33,676 nt of DNA from Kiritimatiellia bacterium. Its GTDB lineage: Bacteria; Verrucomicrobiota; Kiritimatiellia; RFP12; UBA1067. Position 1 is the stretch's first letter. Each line of letters starts with the position of its first letter. Location of the stretch: NCBI GenBank assembly GCA_024405265.1, contig JAKSOZ010000019.1:1-33676 (forward strand). The letters run 5' to 3'. Below the pieces are notes generated by a model that was not told the origin of the DNA, did no database searches, and saw nothing but the letters and a program-made list of their open reading frames with translations. The translations under genes were made by a program, and so were the position numbers. Shown here one piece after another: positions 2,920-12,605 of this stretch.

Positions 2920-5592
2920 TTACGCGAAGAGTTTCGCGAGCTTTTCGAGCTGCTGAACCTTTTCCTTGTTTTCGGCAAGCTTCTTGCGCGCGTCTTCTAC
3001 GACTGCCGCGGGGGCATGGGCGACGAAGTTCTCGTTACTTAATTTCGCTTCCGAGGTCTTGATGAAGCCGGCGAGCTTCGCGAGTTCTCCCGCGATGCGC
3101 TTCGCTTCAGCTTGCTTATCGACGAGACCTTCCAAGGAGAGATACACCGTACCGAACGCCGTCATCTTCGAAGGCATCGCGAGATCGGCTCCGGCAGGAA
3201 CGACTTCGATCGACTCCGCGCGCATCGCCTTCTTAAGCGAGGCGATTTCACCCGCGATATCCTTATCGGTCGCAATCGAAACCTTGACGAAAGTCGAAGG
3301 CGTAACCTTGTATTCGGCGCGGAGCGCACGAAGCGCGGTAATCGCCTCGCGCTTGGAATTGACGAACTCGTAAACTTCCTCGGTAAGTCCCCACTCAGCC
3401 TTCTCCGCGGCACTATATCCGGTCGGATAATCGGCCTTCATGATCGTCTCTTCAGCGTTCAAGTAGCCGAGCTGATGCGCGACTTCTTCGGTGACGAACG
3501 GCATATAGGGGTGGAGGAGTTTGAGGGCCTTATAGAAGACATCCTTCAAAATCGCGAGCGAAACGGCCTTATTGGGCGAATCCTTCAAGTATTCGACGTA
3601 CCAGTCGCAAATCTGCGTCCAGAAGAAGTCGTAAACCGCGAGAGCGCCGTCCTGAATACGATAGCTCTCCAAGATCGCCTTCATCTTCTCGCAGGCCTTC
3701 TCGGTCGCGATGAGCATGTGCTTATCGTCGGAGGAAAGATCTTCGGCCTTGAGCGTATCGAGCTTGGAAATGGCGCCCACTTCCGCGGTCTTCATCTCGA
3801 AGAACTTCGCCGCATTCCAAATCTTGGTCGTGAAGTTACGACCGATTTCGAACTTCTCCTTGTTGACTTTCGTGTCGCAATCGAGCGAAGTGATGAGCGC
3901 GATGGAGAAGCGCAACGCATCGGCGGAGTACTGGCTGATAAGTTCCAACGGATCGAGGCTGTTGCCCTTCGACTTCGACATCTTCGAGCCGTCCGCCGCG
4001 CGGACAATGCCGTGAATGACGATGTTCTTGAACGGCGGCTTCTTCATGAAGTGAATACCCGCCATCATCATACGAGCGACCCAGAAGAATATGATGTCCT
4101 GAGCGGTAACGAGATCCGCGGTCGGATAGTAGTAGTCGAGGTCTTCCGTCTTCTCCGGCCAACCGAGCGTTTCAAAAGGCCAGAGCCAGCTCGAGAACCA
4201 CGTATCGAGCACATCGGGATCCTGTTCGAGGTCGTTGAGCGTAAGTGCGGCATTGCCGGTCTTTTCCTGCGCGGCCTTAAGGGCTTCTTCTGCAGTTTCC
4301 GCGACGAAGATATCTTCGCCCAAGTACCAAGCGGGGATGCGGTGCCCCCACCAGAGCTGACGCGAAATGCACCAGTCCTGAATGTTGTTCATCCAGTTGA
4401 AATAGATATTTTCCCAACGCTTCGGGACGAACTTGACTTCACCCGACTTGACCGCTTCGATAGCGGGCTCGGCGAGCGGTTTCATCTTCACGAACCACTG
4501 CTTCGAAAGGCGCGATTCGACGACTTCGTGGCAGCGGTAGCAGTGACCGACCTGATTGTCGTAATCTTCGATGTGATCGAGGTACCCGCCTTCCTCGAGA
4601 TCGGCAACTAGCGCCTTGCGACATTCGAAGCGGTCCATTCCGCAGTACTTCTCGCCCGCGAGCTCGTTCATATGCCCGTCATCGGTCATGATGTTGATTT
4701 CTTCGAGCCCATGACGCTTGCCGACGAGGAAGTCGTTCGGATCGTGGGCAGGCGTGATTTTCACGATACCCGTACCGAATTCCTTCTCGACATAATCATC
4801 GGCGAGAATCGGGATTTCGCGGCCCGTCAAAGGAAGAATGACGTTCTTGCCGACAATCGCGGCAAAACGCTCGTCCTTCGGATTGACGGCAACAGCCGTA
4901 TCGCCGGGGAGCGTCTCGGGACGAGTTGTCGCGACGACGATGTAGTCCTTGTTGAGCTCGCCCTTCACACCCGCGGTGCTTCCGACGACGGGATAGCGGA
5001 CATACCAAAGATGACCGTGGTTAGCTTCATGCTCGACTTCGTCGTTCGCGAGCGCCGTGCCGCAACGCGGACACCAGTTGACGATGTAGTTGCCCTTATA
5101 GATAAGACCTTCATCGAAAAGCTGCTTAAAGACCTTCATGACCGCCTTGTTGCAGCCGTCATCGAAGGTGAAGCGTTCACGCGCCCAGTCGGTCGAGTTG
5201 CCGAGCATGCGCTGCTGGTGGACAATCGTGCCGCCATACTGCTTCTTCCAATCCCAAACGCGCTCGAGGAACTTTTCGCGACCGAGATCCTGACGACGCT
5301 TACCTTCTTTCTTAAGCGCCTTTTCGACGACGTTCTGCGTCGCGATACCGGCGTGGTCGGTACCGGGGAGCCAAAGCGTGTTATAGCCCGACATGCGACG
5401 CCAACGGACGATGATGTCCTGAATCGTCTGATTGAGAGCGTGGCCCATGTGGAGAATGCCGGTCACGTTCGGGGGCGGAATGACTACCGAGTACGGAGTG
5501 CGCGTATCGGGCGTCTCGTGGAAATGCCCGTTGTCTTCCCAAAACTTGTACCATTTGGCCTCTGCGGCCTTCGCATCGTATTGTTTTTCCAT
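2920..5592 (-). CDS. valS: Valine--tRNA ligase
   Basis: Class I aminoacyl-tRNA synthetase that charges tRNA-Val and edits mischarged Thr-tRNA. The 890-residue length is typical. The N-terminus carries P-P-P-N-V-T-G-I-L-H-M-G-H with the HIGH-type motif HMGH at 48-51. The KMSKS motif is at about residue 537 within D-G-S-K-M-S-K-S-K-G-N. The CP1 editing domain is recognisable by T-T-R-P-E-T-L-P-G-D-T-A, and the C-terminal 60 residues form the usual tRNA-binding coiled coil. Metal-type C-x-x-C pairs occur in V-N-W-C-P-R-C-G and G-H-C-Y-R-C-H. GAGGT lies seven bases before the ATG. It is the first gene of the operon, with a -10 at 5615-5620, and borders the accessory island. Confidence 0.98.
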   Translation of the reverse strand: MEKQYDAKAAEAKWYKFWEDNGHFHETPDTRTPYSVVIPPPNVTGILHMGHALNQTIQDIIVRWRRMSGYNTLWLPGTDHAGIATQNVVEKALKKEGKRRQDLGREKFLERVWDWKKQYGGTIVHQQRMLGNSTDWARERFTFDDGCNKAVMKVFKQLFDEGLIYKGNYIVNWCPRCGTALANDEVEHEANHGHLWYVRYPVVGSTAGVKGELNKDYIVVATTRPETLPGDTAVAVNPKDERFAAIVGKNVILPLTGREIPILADDYVEKEFGTGIVKITPAHDPNDFLVGKRHGLEEINIMTDDGHMNELAGEKYCGMDRFECRKALVADLEEGGYLDHIEDYDNQVGHCYRCHEVVESRLSKQWFVKMKPLAEPAIEAVKSGEVKFVPKRWENIYFNWMNNIQDWCISRQLWWGHRIPAWYLGEDIFVAETAEEALKAAQEKTGNAALTLNDLEQDPDVLDTWFSSWLWPFETLGWPEKTEDLDYYYPTADLVTAQDIIFFWVARMMMAGIHFMKKPPFKNIVIHGIVRAADGSKMSKSKGNSLDPLELISQYSADALRFSIALITSLDCDTKVNKEKFEIGRNFTTKIWNAAKFFEMKTAEVGAISKLDTLKAEDLSSDDKHMLIATEKACEKMKAILESYRIQDGALAVYDFFWTQICDWYVEYLKDSPNKAVSLAILKDVFYKALKLLHPYMPFVTEEVAHQLGYLNAEETIMKADYPTGYSAAEKAEWGLTEEVYEFVNSKREAITALRALRAEYKVTPSTFVKVSIATDKDIAGEIASLKKAMRAESIEVVPAGADLAMPSKMTAFGTVYLSLEGLVDKQAEAKRIAGELAKLAGFIKTSEAKLSNENFVAHAPAAVVEDARKKLAENKEKVQQLEKLAKLFA

Positions 5593-5848: not shown

Positions 5849-6175
5849 TTACAACGAGGGCGAAGTCAAGGTTCTTGACTGATTAAACACCCTCAAATAC
5901 GGACCCTTGAATGTGTAACATTTGAGGGTCTGAAAACTATTACCATTCCACTGGAAGTCGGGACGGTTGGTCGTGCCGCCCGAGAAGCCGCCATCGGCAT
6001 AGACCGCGCCGGTGAAACGCCACCCATCGTTCTTGTGTCGTTCGATAAAGGTCTTGCAAGTGTCCGCCTGGCAGTCGATGGACGTGTAGTCGCGGTCGAG
6101 TCCGTCAGAGGAACTCTTGCGGCAGTAGATAACGCACCGCTTCGTGCCATGAGTATCGTTTGTGTTGTTCGTCAT
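5849..6175 (-). pseudogene. Serine recombinase, N-terminal fragment
   Basis: The first 75 or so residues match the resolvase/invertase catalytic domain of serine site-specific recombinases. V-I-Y-C-R-K-S gives R19 and the probable nucleophile S21, T-S-I-D-C-Q at 31-36 corresponds to the usual S-x-x-x-Q helix, and D-G-G-F-S-G-G-T-T-N-R-P-D-F-Q lies at 61-75. Similarity stops near residue 76, and the remaining frame is read through an inverted repeat to a stop. Complete members of the large serine recombinase group are several hundred residues long, so the DNA-binding part is missing and the protein cannot be an active integrase. AAGGAG five bases before the ATG and a 9-base gap to the DUF2924 gene show that the start is authentic. 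It was presumably the integrase of this island. Confidence 0.85.
5890..5930. repeat. Nested inverted repeat at the recombinase truncation
   Basis: CCCTCAAAT (5890-5898) is repeated inverted as ATTTGAGGG (5920-5928). Inside it, GACCCTTGAATGT (5902-5914) and ACATTTGAGGGTC (5918-5930) form a second hairpin with two mismatches and a three-base loop. It lies just beyond the point where similarity to serine recombinases stops, so it may mark a deletion or insertion junction. Confidence 0.5.
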
Positions 6176-6184
6176 AAGATCTCC

Positions 6185-6622
6185 TTACTTTGCGTTGAGC
6201 GCGGGCATGTGAAAGAACTCGCGCCCATTCCAGTTCGTGCCGGTGATGAGCTTCGCGACGACCGAGGGCGAGCGATAGATCTGCCCGTTGTACTCGTACT
6301 CCTTTTCGCCTCGATAGGTGAGGACGTGTGTCGTTCCTCTCCAGATGCGCGTGTACTGCGTTCCCGGAGAGTGGGGCTCGCGCGTTGCCTTGCGCTCGGT
6401 GCGCTTGACGAGGGACTCGTTGAGGATGTCCACGGTCTGGTCTGAGATCGTCCGTCCGTAGAACTCTTCCTGAAGCTTGTAGATGACCTCGGAGCGGAGG
6501 CTCTGCACATTCCGCGTCGAACGCGAGTCAAAGAACCTCCCATACTTGATGAGGATCTCGTTTGCGTCCATCCGCTGGACGCGGGCGATCTCCGCGAGGA
6601 GACTTGGTGTCGGTGTCGTCAT
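6185..6622 (-). CDS. DUF2924 family protein of a recombinase module
   Basis: A 145-residue protein whose C-terminal third matches DUF2924. It has a P-G-T-x-x-T-R-I-W-R-G stretch, a short hairpin ending E-Y-N-G-x-x-Y-R-S, then V-V-A-K-L-I-T-G-T-N-W-N-G-R-E-F-F. DUF2924 proteins typically stand directly upstream of a serine recombinase in phage-like elements, as here (9-base gap to the recombinase fragment). Their biochemical role is not known to me. I chose the ATG at 6620-6622 because the family begins near there and AAAGGT lies nine bases upstream; a longer frame to 6760 adds an uncharacteristic Ser/Arg-rich tail. It looks intact although its partner is truncated. Confidence 0.8.
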   Translation of the reverse strand: MTTPTPSLLAEIARVQRMDANEILIKYGRFFDSRSTRNVQSLRSEVIYKLQEEFYGRTISDQTVDILNESLVKRTERKATREPHSPGTQYTRIWRGTTHVLTYRGEKEYEYNGQIYRSPSVVAKLITGTNWNGREFFHMPALNAK

Positions 6623-6680
6623 TCCAGTTAGACCTTTCTGCTTACATAATGCCGTAATCGCTGCGAATAATCCACTACGA

Positions 6681-6809
6681 TTATCGAGAAATCTTCCACG
6701 GTTCGATGCCGAGAGATATGAGACGCTCGACGGCAGCCGCGAGGAGCCGCGCCGCGTCAACGAAGTTGTCGGGGACTTGGGGTTCGTTTTTTTGTCTGCA
6801 TGTGTTCAT
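6681..6809 (-). CDS. Small 42-residue ORF heading the recombinase module
   Basis: An ATG frame of 42 codons lies 58 bases upstream of the DUF2924 gene on the same strand. The product has a polar start followed by an amphipathic helix-like stretch D-A-A-R-L-L-A-A-A-V-E-R-L-I and ends G-I-E-P-W-K-I-S-R. Its GC-rich codon use resembles the DUF2924 gene and contrasts with the AT-rich DNA just upstream. A small helical protein in this position is plausible for this kind of module, but I do not recognise the family and no clear ribosome binding site is visible. Confidence 0.45.
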   Translation of the reverse strand: MNTCRQKNEPQVPDNFVDAARLLAAAVERLISLGIEPWKISR

Positions 6810-6994: not shown

Positions 6995-7891
6995 ATGCCA
7001 TCGCGGAACATTATCGATGCCATCGCAAGTATTTGCTCATTGAAGTCTGTAAAGATCTCCACTGTTAGCTATCGTCAAAATACGATTAACGCACTTGGCG
7101 TTTCTCTTGAGGAGTTTGTTAAAGATTTGTTTGCAGGCTCTCTTGGATTGAAAGCCAAGCGCACTCGCGAGCGTCTACTGAACAGCACATTCTCTTATCG
7201 CGGCAACCAAAACAATCCCCCTGACGCGCTTCTTCGAGGAGGCGATGCCATTGAGATCAAGAAGCTTTCGTCATCCGGCTCGTCGATGCCTCTTAATTCT
7301 TCGTATCCGAAACATACGTTGAAAAGCACAAATCCGATGATCACAAAGGAGTGTCGCGAGGCTGAAACGTGGAGCGAGGAGGACATTATCTATGTTGTAG
7401 GGGTCGTAGACAGCAAAACCGATATCCTCAAGAGGCTGTGGATGGTTTATGGTTCGGATTATTGCGCATCATCAGATTCATACGAGATAGTGCGTACAAA
7501 AATCATTGAAGCCATCAAGACTCTCCCTAATATGCAGTTTGTCAAAACTAACGAGCTTGCGCATCTTAATGGAATTGACCCCCTAGGAATTACATATTTC
7601 AGAGCTAGAAATCTCTGGGGCATAGCCACACCTTGGAAGGTTTTTGAAAAACCTTTTGTTGAGTCTATGGTTAAGCACTTGAAAAGTTTTGATGCCGGAG
7701 ATTTCGAGTTTGTCGCCATCATTAGCGACAAGAAATTACAGACCCTTGAAAATTCAGATCAGATAAAGAAGATGGCACTTGACAAAACCAACGAATTGAG
7801 CGTAAATAGTGTCATGATTAAAAATCCTGATAGGCCAAACGAAAACATCTCTGCAAAAATGATTATTATGACAAGGAACTACAATGGCTAA
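6995..7891 (+). CDS. NgoPII-family type II restriction endonuclease (expected site GGCC)
   Basis: The 298-residue product matches the NgoPII endonuclease family. It has the block [24 protein letters not shown] at 67-90, which holds the PD-(D/E)XK catalytic residues D77, E87 and K89. L-N-S-S-Y-P-K at 100-106 and [11 protein letters not shown] near 130 are also family features. NgoPII cuts GGCC, and the neighbouring methyltransferase is of the GGCC-specific M.HaeIII type, so GGCC is the expected target. The gene has its own promoter. Its end overlaps the methyltransferase start by eight bases, so the two are coupled with the endonuclease translated first. Codon use is AT-richer than in the flanking host genes, consistent with transfer. 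Confidence 0.92.
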
Positions 7892-8900
7892 AAAACTTAA
7901 CCTAATCTCGCTCTTCGCCGGTGCAGGCGGAATGGATCTTGGCTTTGAGAAAGCCGGCTTCAATGTTGCTGTGGCTAACGAATTTGATCCTGAAATCTGT
8001 CCAACGTATAGACACAACCACAAGCATACCCATCTCATTGAAGGCGATATTCGCAACATCAGTGATGCAGACATTGAAATTGACAATGTCGTTGGGCTGA
8101 TTGGTGGTCCGCCTTGTCAGAGCTGGAGCGAAGCCGGTTCTCTTGGAGGAATCGAGGACGCACGTGGAAAACTCTTCTACGATTACATCCGTATTCTTCA
8201 AAAGAAGCAGCCGCTGTTCTTTGTTGCCGAAAACGTATCTGGAATGCTAGCTAAGCGCAACGAGGAAGCAGTAAAGAACATCCTCAAGATGTTTGATGAA
8301 GCAGGCTACGATGTTCAATATAAGCTTCTGAACTCAAACGACTACCATGTTCCGCAGATTCGTGAGCGTGTGTTTTATATCGGATTCAGAAAAGACCTCA
8401 ACATCAGCGACTTCGAGTATCCGACTCCGCTCGACGAAAAACCACTAACCCTCAAGGATGCCATCTGGGATCTAAGAGAGACGGCCGTTCCTGCGCTCGC
8501 AAAGAACAAGCACCGCTCAGATCTTAAGGTCTTGAATCATGAATATTTCATCGGGAACTACTCGACGATCTTCATGAGCCGAAACCGCGTTAAGGCATGG
8601 GATGAACCGGCTTTCACCGTGCAAGCTTCTGGTCGCCAATGCCAACTTCATCCGCAAGCACCTAAGATGGAGAAGTTCGGACCTAATGATATGCGATTTG
8701 TAAAGGGCAAGGAAGATCTTTATCGCCGCCTTACTGTTCGTGAATGCGCTCGCGTGCAAGGCTTCCCGGATGATTTCGAATTTCTTTACACGGATGTCAA
8801 CATGGGCTACAAGATGATCGGCAATGCTGTCCCAGTTAACTTCGCCTACGCCGTTGGCAAACAGGTTCTGGAATGCCTTAAGCGGAACAAGGCAATCTAA
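7884..8900 (+). CDS. C5-cytosine DNA methyltransferase, M.HaeIII/M.NgoPII-like (GGCC)
   Basis: A 338-residue DNA (cytosine-5) methyltransferase. Motif I is [12 protein letters not shown] at 10-21. Motif [11 protein letters not shown], carries the nucleophile C78. Further on are motif VI A-E-N-V-S-G, motif [15 protein letters not shown], and the final [17 protein letters not shown] and [12 protein letters not shown]. The target recognition region has [15 protein letters not shown] and [17 protein letters not shown], which I recognise as closely M.HaeIII-like, so methylation of GGCC is expected. AAGGAA lies just before the ATG. The enzyme should protect the chromosome from both endonucleases of this island. 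A strong terminator follows. Confidence 0.95.
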
Positions 8901-8914
8901 GTCATAAAGCATCT

Positions 8915-8962
8915 AAAGCAAACTGGCGCAGACATCCTATGGTCTGCGCCAGTTTGCTTTTT
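8915..8962. terminator. Strong terminator between convergent island operons
   Basis: A perfect inverted repeat has arms at 8915-8933 and 8942-8960 (core AGCAAACTGGCGCAGAC) around an 8-base loop, followed on the plus strand by a T run. It ends the R-M operon. The minus-strand flank is less T-rich, but the hairpin could also serve the opposing operon, whose last gene stops at 8965. Confidence 0.9.
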
Positions 8963-8964
8963 CG

Positions 8965-9162
8965 TCATTCCTGCTGAGATTCATTGTCATCGAAATAGAC
9001 TTCGTAGCACGAGATTCCTTTCCGCGCTTTCTTAACCAACGAATAAAAACTGTTATAATTATTCTTGGGCGACAAATGCAGAATCTCCGAGCACTCTGCT
9101 GCAGATCCTGTTGCTACGAGTTCATCTGATTCTTTCAGATATACAGTATAAAATCTCGCCAT
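8965..9162 (-). CDS. Small 65-residue accessory protein
   Basis: The last gene of the minus-strand island operon, 10 bases after the nuclease-helicase. The product begins M-A-R-F-Y-T-V-Y and continues with E-L-V-A-T-G-S-A-A-E-C-S-E-I-L, then N-S-F-Y-S-L-V-K-K-A-R-K-G. This layout resembles small phage and mobile-element proteins in which a beta hairpin (x-Y-x-V-Y-D-x-x-x-D-E-L-x-A-x-G-T) precedes a helix-turn-helix-like segment that starts after A-x-E-C. A DNA-binding role is inference. I chose the ATG at 9160-9162 because the family-like N-terminus starts there; GGAGAGG lies about 14 bases upstream, somewhat far. An alternative upstream start would overlap the helicase gene. Confidence 0.6.
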   Translation of the reverse strand: MARFYTVYLKESDELVATGSAAECSEILHLSPKNNYNSFYSLVKKARKGISCYEVYFDDNESQQE

Positions 9163-9172
9163 ATATGATCTT

Positions 9173-10900
9173 TTAGCCTCTCCTGTCAAAATAGACAAAG
9201 CAGCCTCGCTTGCCACGAGTCATCATAATGTAATAACAATTTCTTATGTACTCCGTGCAACGAACAGTGAACTCAGAAAGGAGATCGGCATTTTCTGGTT
9301 TGTGCAAATGAGATATGATATTCTTAAACGAGTTGTAGTAGTCAATGCCGCCTACGCCACCATATTTCCCCGGCTTGTGTGCAATCAAATCTGCATCGAT
9401 TTTTAGATCTTGCGCAATGCTGATGATCATGGCAAACATCTTTACTTTGTCAACATCGGCGATTAATCCGTCAGAAGTTAATATGGCATCTTCGCCTACA
9501 ATGACAGCCGTGTAATCAACATCAAGTCCTGGCATCCACCACGATCCAACCCAGAATCGACCGTTGTACTGCCCTTGATAATTTCGGTTTCTTACATAAG
9601 GAATCCATTCGCATTCGGTTCTACTCCCCCAGTTGGTAAACAAACGTTGGTTCGAGCTTATCGGAAGGGTCTTGAGCATTGATGTGACCGCAATGGTCAT
9701 ATCGGGTCGATCCTTATGTAACGAAAAAATCGCATTCTGAAAATCGTCGTAGTTATCAAAGATCCTAAAATCAAATTTTTCATCTTTAGTAAATTCAGAC
9801 ATCCCGCTCAGACAGTCGCGAATATTTTTCTCAGCAACCAAAGATCCGTTATATCGGACAGATTCTTTTAGTTCAATCGTAACAAAGTCCTCGCGAGACT
9901 CCAAGCGTTTAAGTTCTGCAATTGGATTGTTGGCATTAATGGTTTGCTTTTCATCATAACAAAGTATAAGACGAGCTCCGCGTGAAACCATATTCGATAT
10001 CACGCCCTCGTCGTTATGTTGAGCCTCGTCCATGAAGAGAATAAAGTTTTTTGCAATCTCTGGGCGAACAGTTTTATCAAGTGTCCAAGGCAGAGTAAAT
10101 GTATCTTCCGATGACGGGTAGATACTCCTGTACAGAGCCGTATTCTGTCTTCCGCTTACAAAGATAGGCGTTATCTTGCTTTTAGCACAGCTCTTAAGCA
10201 CCGTAACAAAAAGATTGAGAAGAATGGCTGTTTTCCCTGCACCTGCCGCGCCTGTTACTCGAACAATATGCTTACCGGCCTTAAGTGCGTCTCGTATCTT
10301 ATCAACGGCTTTGCTTTGCTCTTTTGTAAGAATGAAAGGCTCTTCGTGGGTAACTATGGAATGCATCGCTTCAACAATACCCTTGCAAGGCGAGAAGGTT
10401 GCATCGCGCAAATCTGTTAATGCTTCTGGACATCCATGCGGAAGAAACTTTGCAATTTCCTCGATGAATGAATTCATGTTGTTCCTGACGGTTACGCGCG
10501 TTCCTCCGGGGAAAGGATGTTTATCCCCTAGAAGTCGAACGCCATCCGTGGAGGCATTGCGTACAAAGACAAGGGGATAGACTTTGTATTTCGCTCCAAT
10601 ATCAAGATAGTCGCGAAAGCTTATGGCGTGACGAGCCACCTGAACTTCAGGATGCAGCTCATAACCACTCCGCCTATACGAAGAAAATCGAGACTCTTTA
10701 ATATACGAATCATCCCATTGCTTTGATTCGATTATAAATGCACACGCATAGCCTTTAGCATTTCTTCCAAGAAACACGAGATCCGCAGCCATGCCGTCGG
10801 TTGGCAAAGAATACTCCACTGCTACCACAACATCATGTGGCAGCTTATTCTTTTTCAGTGCAGCCTTAACATCGTTTACAAGAACGTGCCAAGAATGCAC
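9173..10900 (-). CDS. PD-(D/E)XK nuclease fused to DUF2075-type helicase
   Basis: A 575-residue protein with two parts. Residues 1-115 look like a PD-(D/E)XK nuclease: A-A-D-L-V-F-L-G with D40, a strand, then F-I-I-E-S-K-Q-W with E58 and K60. From about 190 there is a superfamily 1-like helicase of the DUF2075 type. Q195 lies in the family-type L-T-K-E-Q-S-K-A-V-D, Walker A is G-A-A-G-A-G-K-T at 217-224, Walker B is F-M-D-E-A-Q-H at 289-295, and the C-terminal M-M-T-R-G-K-R-G with R562 is the arginine motif. The start is GTG at 10898-10900 with GGAGG eight bases upstream; the preceding 33-codon ORF ends in TAG directly against it, so translation is probably coupled. Nuclease-helicase fusions of this kind are often found in defence islands. 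A role in restriction of foreign DNA or end processing is inference from the neighbours. Confidence 0.85.
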   Translation of the reverse strand: MHSWHVLVNDVKAALKKNKLPHDVVVAVEYSLPTDGMAADLVFLGRNAKGYACAFIIESKQWDDSYIKESRFSSYRRSGYELHPEVQVARHAISFRDYLDIGAKYKVYPLVFVRNASTDGVRLLGDKHPFPGGTRVTVRNNMNSFIEEIAKFLPHGCPEALTDLRDATFSPCKGIVEAMHSIVTHEEPFILTKEQSKAVDKIRDALKAGKHIVRVTGAAGAGKTAILLNLFVTVLKSCAKSKITPIFVSGRQNTALYRSIYPSSEDTFTLPWTLDKTVRPEIAKNFILFMDEAQHNDEGVISNMVSRGARLILCYDEKQTINANNPIAELKRLESREDFVTIELKESVRYNGSLVAEKNIRDCLSGMSEFTKDEKFDFRIFDNYDDFQNAIFSLHKDRPDMTIAVTSMLKTLPISSNQRLFTNWGSRTECEWIPYVRNRNYQGQYNGRFWVGSWWMPGLDVDYTAVIVGEDAILTSDGLIADVDKVKMFAMIISIAQDLKIDADLIAHKPGKYGGVGGIDYYNSFKNIISHLHKPENADLLSEFTVRCTEYIRNCYYIMMTRGKRGCFVYFDRRG

Positions 10901-11002
10901 CTAACTAGCCTCCGAGTCTGGGTAGATTCTTTTTAACGAATCAACTATGACATCTGACTCAGTTGTCTCAAAGTCAGAGATTAATGCGTAGTACCCGTTC
11001 AT
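10901..11002 (-). CDS. Overlooked 33-residue ORF between endonuclease and helicase
   Basis: An ATG at 11000-11002 begins one base after the TAA of the upstream endonuclease frame, and the TAG at 10901-10903 touches the GTG of the helicase gene. The frame therefore fills the gap exactly. The product is acidic (begins M-N-G-Y-Y-A-L-I-S-D-F-E-T-T-E) and matches nothing I know. The ribosome binding site of the helicase (GGAGG) lies inside it. It may be a real small protein or a coupling device that delivers ribosomes to the GTG start. Confidence 0.5.
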   Translation of the reverse strand: MNGYYALISDFETTESDVIVDSLKRIYPDSEAS

Positions 11003-11003
11003 A

Positions 11004-11901
11004 TTACATCACAGGGATGATGCGTCGGGGAAGAGGCATATCAATGGGCTGTGTGTCGAATTTAAGGCTTGGAGTAGACCCGCTGGCTGCAAGTCGAGAA
11101 CTTGCCGTATGAAGCCGCAGGCTGAGTTTCCATCCGTTGTTAAACGTCAAATAGATATAGCTAGGAATCTCTTTGTTAAAAGCTACATCGCAAGAAGTAG
11201 GCTTCTTGATGCTTGAGAAATCCACAAACTCTAAGTTGCCGTTCTGAAAAATGACTTTAATATAGTCCGTATTACCTACTAGGAATGTGAAGAACGTAAT
11301 GCAAATATTTGCATCCTTCAAATAATTACGAAGGAAGCAAACTACTAAATCACAAACCGGCGCATAAAGATGCGAGCTGATAAAATTCGGATCAGCAAGT
11401 TTTAGTTCCGGGAATGTGGTTGCCTTTGGGCATAAAAGCTTTGCCTCACGATAGAAGGCATCAAATCGTTTCTGTAGTTCTGTTCGGTAGTTAAAATCCT
11501 CATAGGATTTCTTGGGAAAGCCGAGTTGCTGCATCAAGGACGGCGGTCTTTGATGCTTGAGTGCATGATGATTATTCTTTATGGACAGATTAATCGTACA
11601 CCCATTAGGCTTATGAATGCGGATATCTGTAACATCTCCTTCCCGAGCATCGTCATCAGGCAATCTGTCAACAAGCCCGGTTGCAAACATAAATGGCTCT
11701 CCTCGTAGGATGGTAGCCAGCGCAGAAAGCAGCTCTTTGAAAGCTCCTCATTCGATATTGATCTAGTGTACGAAACTTTACGCCATCGCGAACCTGATCA
11801 GTCTGCGCTCTATCTGTTAAAGAAACGCCAGCTTGTTTTCGCAGCTCATCAACGATGGCGAACTCAAATCCTCTTCCGGTTTGATCGGAGATGTTATCCA
11901 T
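11004..11901 (-). pseudogene. HaeIII-family restriction endonuclease, broken by a frameshift
   Basis: Two frames on the minus strand together give one HaeIII-family endonuclease of about 300 residues. The first (ATG at 11899-11901) begins M-D-N-I-S-D-Q-T-G-R-G-F-E-F-A, like the D-Q-G-R-A-F/Y-E-Y start of the family. It runs out of similarity near 11740 and stops at 11668. The second frame, open from 11747, continues with F-K-E-L-L-S-A-L-A-T-I-L-R-G-E-P, then G-D-V-T-D-I-R-I, L-S-I-K-N-N-H-H-A-L-K-H and the C-terminal G-W-K-L-S-L-R-L-H-T-A-S with P-S-L-K-F-D-T-Q. Skipping one base near 11735-11745 joins them cleanly. AAGGAG lies nine bases before the first ATG. HaeIII cuts GGCC, the same site expected for the neighbouring NgoPII-type system. 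It could be real decay, an assembly error or, less likely, programmed frameshifting; no long homopolymer is at the junction. Confidence 0.82.
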
Positions 11902-12249: not shown

Positions 12250-12605
12250 TGGTGGAGGTGAGGGGAGTCGAACCCCTGTCCGAAACGGCGTCACCCAAAC
12301 ATCTACGCGTGTAGTTCATCTTTAATCTCGAAGCCGATAAGCGGACAAACACGCTAAGCCGACCTCATCCTCTCGATTCGTCACGCTTAAGCGAGCGAGA
12401 GGAGCCCCCTTAAGCGTGATCTGCTATGATAATGCCTAGGCGCTCAGCAGACATCGGCGCTTCGACATGCGGCCTTTATATATTAGGCGGCAAGAGCGTA
12501 ATCGTTGTTCGCAATTACATTTTCACTCGTTTATTAACGTGGCCAACGAGTATCCACGACGCGCAATCTGACCTCAACACATTCCGTCGAAACCGGATCA
12601 CCCCC
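12250..12605 (-). ncRNA. ssrA: Transfer-messenger RNA (tmRNA)
   Basis: A one-piece tmRNA of 356 bases that rescues stalled ribosomes with SmpB. The 5' end GGGGGUG pairs with CACCUCC before the encoded ACCA (CCA at 12250-12252), forming the acceptor stem with GU pairs. The 5' segment shows the typical GGUUUCGACGG, and the 3' segment the T arm GGACAGGGGUUCGACUCCCC. The tag reading frame begins GCG-AAC-AAC-GAU and ends GCC-GCC-UAA, encoding ANNDYALAA, so with the alanine from the tRNA part the tag ends in the usual Y-A-L-A-A degron. A hairpin with T run separates it from tRNA-Phe. Its 3' flank borders the accessory island, a common location for integrated elements. Confidence 0.97.

What the first reader, a model, noticed from the sequence alone, without database searches (positions are those of the whole stretch)
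8965..11901. Candidate undescribed defence operon: HaeIII-type nuclease, 33-aa ORF, PD-(D/E)XK-helicase fusion, 65-aa protein
Four minus-strand frames follow each other with gaps of 1, 0 and 10 bases behind one promoter. A type II endonuclease coupled to a separate nuclease-helicase is not the standard R-M layout. The helicase could process or extend restriction products, or be an independent anti-phage effector sharing the operon. The order and motifs are seen; the function is inference.
Basis: partly seen in the sequence, partly recalled or inferred. Interest (0 to 1): 0.75.

Follow-up and report, generated by a model that had tools for sequence, protein, structure and literature searches.

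The report
Decayed restriction operon with nuclease-helicase gene
A small foreign DNA island carries one intact GGCC restriction-modification pair and, facing it, a second GGCC-cutter gene tied to a nuclease-helicase gene, but both genes of that second operon are broken here; an intact distant relative shows that such a nuclease-helicase does sit inside a restriction operon.

Summary
The frames and the gaps of 1, 0 and 10 bases are as described, but they are not four genes. The 33-aa ORF is the start of the helicase gene, cut off by an in-frame TAG where all 28 relatives compared carry Glu or Gln. The HaeIII-type gene is split between two reading frames. So the operon holds two broken genes (HaeIII-type endonuclease; PD-(D/E)XK + SLFN-g3/DUF2075 nuclease-helicase) and a 65-aa ORF without detectable relatives. 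It lies in a low-GC island, convergent with an intact NgoPII-type R-M pair; NgoPII and HaeIII are recorded convergent GGCC isoschizomers. The only close helicase relative found (44%, a Tenericutes MAG) lies between a nuclease-like gene and a C5 methyltransferase; relatives of that nuclease-like gene pair with a similar methyltransferase in seven other genomes. Ordinary DUF2075 genes instead neighbour MazG-like genes, and other HaeIII loci lack the helicase. Best reading: a rare type II R-M variant with an accessory nuclease-helicase coupled to the endonuclease, here pseudogenised. Its function is inference.

The parts
11004..11901 (-). HaeIII-type restriction endonuclease gene, broken by a frameshift (frame 1: 11901-11668; frame 2: 11690-11004; lesion roughly 11740-11680)
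   Evidence: PF09556 on frame 2; tblastn of an intact relative hits both frames
9173..11002 (-). Nuclease-helicase gene (33 + 575 sense codons around one in-frame TAG at 10903-10901); N-terminal PD-(D/E)XK domain (D74, E92, K94 in 609 numbering) and SLFN-g3 SF1 helicase domain
10901..10903 (-). Premature TAG stop at a position that is Glu (25) or Gln (3) in 28 relatives
   Evidence: TAG acts as an ordinary stop in this genome
8965..9162 (-). 65-aa ORF, third of the operon, no relatives detected
8915..8960 (.). Perfect inverted repeat (19-bp arms, 8-nt loop) between the convergent operons, probably a bidirectional terminator
7884..8900 (+). Intact C5 cytosine methyltransferase, 64% identical to the Neisseria gonorrhoeae protein next to an NgoPII-type endonuclease and 66% to one next to a Streptococcus HaeIII-type gene
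6995..7891 (+). Intact NgoPII-type restriction endonuclease
   Evidence: PF09521 2.7e-84; 44% identical to the N. gonorrhoeae relative
5849..6760 (-). DUF2924 gene and truncated serine recombinase (remnant of a mobile element)

Best explanation
The island is a remnant of a mobile element carrying two GGCC restriction units that face each other: an intact NgoPII-type R-M pair, and a second unit made of a HaeIII-type endonuclease translationally coupled to a PD-(D/E)XK nuclease-SF1 helicase, protected by the same methyltransferase. When intact, the nuclease-helicase would most likely load on DNA opened by the endonuclease, unwind and degrade it from the cuts, and so stop the phage from repairing or using restriction fragments. 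In this genome the second unit is pseudogenised: a frameshift in the endonuclease and a nonsense codon in the helicase. Shown: gene content, order, lesions, domain assignment, conserved catalytic and helicase residues, and one relative with a nuclease-like gene - helicase - methyltransferase order. Inferred: translational coupling, GGCC specificity, end processing, loss of function.
For: Frameshift. Nonsense codon at an E/Q position conserved in 28/28 relatives; TAG works as a stop here (13 of 262 long ORFs end in it, and no Pfam domain found crosses an internal TAG). A 44%-identical full-length helicase in L007 starts 2 bases after a 225-aa nuclease-like gene and 58 bases before a C5 methyltransferase; relatives of the 225-aa gene neighbour a methyltransferase like that one (mostly 59-61% identical) in all seven other genomes found. 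The 1-base gap in the window and the 2-base gap in L007 suggest coupling to the endonuclease. Both proteins share a helicase motif-V change (Q to P) absent from 27 ordinary DUF2075s. NgoPII + methyltransferase + HaeIII recurs in a Vibrio plasmid (L025) and in G265, where methyltransferase and HaeIII are one ORF. HaeIII and NgoPII are cited as convergent enzymes (PMC4081073).
Against: Linkage of this helicase clade to R-M rests on two loci; no HaeIII-type locus examined elsewhere (7 in the phylum sample, 5 plasmid regions) has the helicase. Good Shine-Dalgarno-like sequences stand before the internal GTG (10900) and ATG (11690), so truncated proteins may still be made. The lesions come from one MAG assembly and no reads were available. 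No evidence bears on DNA-end processing itself.
Confidence: 0.5

Rival explanations
1. The nuclease-helicase is an independent single-gene anti-phage effector (Nhi-, AbiO- or PDC-S41-like) that merely shares a defence island and transcript with the endonuclease.
For: PADLOC profiles for Nhi, AbiO and PDC-S41 match it; several DUF2075 relatives on plasmids lie near varied R-M and other defence genes; other HaeIII loci do without it.
Against: In both close loci the helicase follows the endonuclease or nuclease-like gene by 1-2 bases and a methyltransferase is beside it, tighter than chance sharing of an island suggests.
Confidence: 0.3
2. The operon is still active: HaeIII is made as two chains and the helicase restarts at GTG 10900, giving a 575-aa protein that keeps the PD-(D/E)XK core.
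For: GAGGAG- and GGAGG-type sequences stand about 8 nt before ATG 11690 and GTG 10900; D40/E58/K60 and all helicase motifs lie downstream of the restart; each gene has only one lesion.
Against: The compared HaeIII relatives are single chains with the conserved N-terminal GRxxE stretch that the 228-aa product lacks; the first 33 residues are conserved in layout across the family and form a confidently predicted strand and helices of the N-terminal domain.
Confidence: 0.12
3. The two lesions are assembly or consensus errors and the operon is intact in the living organism.
For: Single MAG assembly (77% complete, 56 contigs); each gene has only one lesion and the rest of both frames is open.
Against: The neighbouring housekeeping and NgoPII R-M genes are long and open over the rest of the 33 kb; no homopolymer run lies at the frameshift.
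Confidence: 0.15

Closest known systems
HaeIII / NgoPII type II R-M systems (GGCC)
   Same: RE_HaeIII and RE_NgoPII domains, C5 methyltransferase 64-66% identical to proteins next to such endonucleases, NgoPII-type R gene directly followed by M
   Different: Both endonuclease families share one methyltransferase in one island, and the HaeIII-type gene is followed by a nuclease-helicase
SLFN-g3 helicase (DUF2075, PF09848) proteins with N-terminal PD-(D/E)XK/NERD-like domain; PADLOC candidate PDC-S41
   Same: Same two-domain architecture, catalytic D/E/K, Walker A/B and arginine residues
   Different: Only 20-25% identity; motif V Q replaced by P; neighbour is an R-M gene instead of a MazG-like gene
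Nhi (nuclease-helicase immunity)
   Same: Nuclease fused to SF1 helicase; Nhi profile matches the helicase part
   Different: N-terminal part not matched; directly behind a restriction gene
Accessory ATPase-nuclease candidate beside a HaeIII-type R-M (Streptococcus agalactiae plasmid, L026)
   Same: HaeIII-type endonuclease and methyltransferase followed by a large ATPase with a weak C-terminal NucS-like stretch
   Different: GHKL-type ATPase, not a helicase; unrelated sequence

Membership tests
Type II R-M, HaeIII type | RE_HaeIII endonuclease domain | tested here: met
   PF09556 2.6e-16 on the 228-aa frame; 49.5% identity to an intact HaeIII-family protein
Type II R-M, HaeIII type | Intact endonuclease reading frame | tested here: not met
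   Gene split between two frames
Type II R-M, HaeIII type | Cognate C5 methyltransferase nearby | tested here: met
   Convergent methyltransferase 7884-8900, 66% identical to the one beside a Streptococcus HaeIII-type gene
Type II R-M, HaeIII type | Cleavage and methylation at GGCC | not testable with these tools
   Inferred from family
NgoPII R-M | RE_NgoPII endonuclease plus C5 methyltransferase in one operon, both intact | tested here: met
SLFN-g3 helicase (DUF2075, PF09848) | Profile above curated cut-off and SF1 helicase motifs | tested here: met
   90.6 bits against 24; Walker A/B, D350, Q353, R383, R596 invariant
PD-(D/E)XK nuclease domain | Conserved D...ExK on a helix-strands-helix-strand core | tested here: met
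   D74/E92/K94 in 29/29; N-terminal model pLDDT 81.9 resembles Can2, EndoMS, Kpn2I and BsoBI at Z 5.4-8.0, no strong single match
Nhi | Match over the whole single-gene nuclease-helicase | tested here: inconclusive
   PADLOC Nhi profile matches only positions 178-377 of 470
PADLOC PDC-S41 | Match over the whole profile | tested here: inconclusive
   5.1e-10, positions 39-274 of 657

The most novel reading that the evidence does not exclude
A rare clade of PD-(D/E)XK-helicases is a dedicated accessory of type II R-M systems, inserted directly behind unrelated endonucleases in different phyla, and destroys DNA from the endonuclease's cuts.
Probability: 0.3. Interest if true: 0.6.

Novelty: new variant of a known kind. 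Interest (0 to 1): 0.4.

Why it matters
Type II restriction is usually pictured as cutting alone, with the host's RecBCD-type enzymes cleaning up. A nuclease-helicase encoded with the endonuclease would mean that some type II systems bring their own fragment-destroying machine, which is directly testable with the intact Tenericutes operon. The window also places two convergently evolved GGCC endonucleases beside one methyltransferase, an arrangement found here in two other organisms, and suggests how the second endonuclease can be lost without risk because the methyltransferase is kept.

Tried and rejected
Recoding of TAG as Gln (0 of 28 genes in the window end in TAG, and L007 has Gln there): rejected, as 13 of 262 long ORFs in 400 kb of the genome end in TAG and no Pfam domain found crosses an internal TAG; tgt ends just before one. 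The 33-aa ORF as a separate gene: rejected. More close helicase relatives: none in 115 family genomes, 388 phylum genomes, 395 + 245 genomes around L007's organism, plasmids, phages or viral contigs. Relatives of the 65-aa ORF: none. Clear att repeats: none. Empty site: none of 14 same-genus tmRNA regions has valS or purF beside it, so no clean empty site could be read. The whole-helicase model is poor (pLDDT 56) and its PDB matches show only the ATPase core; SLFN and Gabija B were among them. Papers on DUF2075 with R-M: none useful.

Full report
Where it is. The window is a whole contig (C11) of a 1.71-Mb draft genome, 77% complete. Between valS (ends at 5592) and a tmRNA gene (12250-12605) lies a stretch of 43.7% G+C against 54.4% in the flanks. 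It holds a DUF2924 gene and the first part of a serine recombinase, an NgoPII-type endonuclease and C5 methyltransferase on the plus strand, and the reported operon on the minus strand. The two operons converge on a perfect 19-bp hairpin at 8915-8960. This looks like the remnant of a mobile defence island.

The observation. The frames and the gaps of 1, 0 and 10 bases are right. The gene count is not. The 33-aa ORF and the 575-aa ORF share a frame and are separated by one TAG. Read through, the protein aligns from its first residue with the 602-aa relative in L007 and with ordinary DUF2075 proteins; at the TAG, 25 relatives have Glu and 3 have Gln. The TAG is an ordinary stop in this genome. 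The HaeIII-type gene is also broken: the intact 300-aa relative of genome G317 matches window 11895-11710 in one frame and 11672-11058 in another. Each gene has one lesion and is otherwise open, which fits recent loss. Both downstream fragments have a good ribosome-binding sequence before an internal start, so truncated products are possible.

What the helicase is. Pfam gives SLFN-g3 helicase (PF09848) with a weak NERD match in front. The N-terminal 206 residues fold at pLDDT 81.9; the structural matches are modest (best Z 8.0, Can2), and the list is rich in PD-(D/E)XK enzymes (Can2, EndoMS, Kpn2I, BsoBI, NucC, FokI) and also holds the corresponding region of Schlafens. The first 33 residues, cut off here by the TAG, form a confident strand and two helices of that domain.

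Context in relatives. Only one close relative was found in the collections searched: L007, a Tenericutes MAG, 44% identical. There a 225-aa gene, the helicase (2 bases on) and a C5 methyltransferase (58 bases on) run in one direction. The 225-aa protein has no Pfam match itself, but its relatives, mostly about 400 aa, sit beside a methyltransferase like L007's in all seven other genomes where they were found, without a match to the helicase in the stretches read. So in L007 the helicase appears to have been inserted into an existing R-M pair, and the nuclease-like gene there lacks the N-terminal half of its relatives. In the window the same clade of helicase follows a HaeIII-type gene. Both helicases share a motif-V change (Q to P) absent from 27 others. 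By contrast, ordinary DUF2075 genes often have a MazG-like neighbour (16 of 108 neighbours from 23 loci) and rarely a C5 methyltransferase (2), and no other HaeIII locus examined had a DUF2075.

Two GGCC endonucleases, one methyltransferase. HaeIII and NgoPII are cited as examples of convergent evolution on the same site (PMC4081073). NgoPII, one methyltransferase and HaeIII lie together also in a Vibrio alginolyticus plasmid and in genome G265, where methyltransferase and HaeIII are a single 665-aa ORF. Sharing the methyltransferase would explain why the second endonuclease can be lost harmlessly (inference).

Mechanism and standing. The most likely original role is an R-M accessory that unwinds and degrades DNA at the endonuclease's cuts; an independent Nhi-like effector is the main rival. 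Neither can be settled by sequence. The known kinds here are type II R-M and DUF2075 nuclease-helicases; what differs is their tight pairing, seen in two loci of distant organisms, and here in a broken state.

Noticed in passing
5849-6760: DUF2924 gene followed by a serine recombinase cut off after about 75 residues; in a same-genus genome (G064, L120) an intact 489-aa recombinase and DUF2924 lie right beside the tmRNA gene.
   Followed up: partly
L067:1864-3861: Natural fusion of a GGCC-type C5 methyltransferase with a HaeIII endonuclease in one 665-aa ORF, with NgoPII just upstream.
   Followed up: partly
L025:4768-5750: The methyltransferase between HaeIII and NgoPII in the Vibrio alginolyticus plasmid falls into two pieces and has no listed gene.
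   Followed up: no
L026:4926-6617: HaeIII-type R-M on a Streptococcus agalactiae plasmid is followed by a GHKL-type ATPase with a weak NucS-like C-terminal stretch: another possible R-M accessory.
   Followed up: partly
L007:5222-5899: The nuclease-like gene in L007 lacks the N-terminal half present in its about 400-aa relatives; in the closest one (L124) the whole protein carries an MTaX1 domain there.
   Followed up: partly
L074-L096: Ordinary DUF2075 nuclease-helicases have an adjacent MazG-like gene of about 105 aa in many loci.
   Followed up: partly
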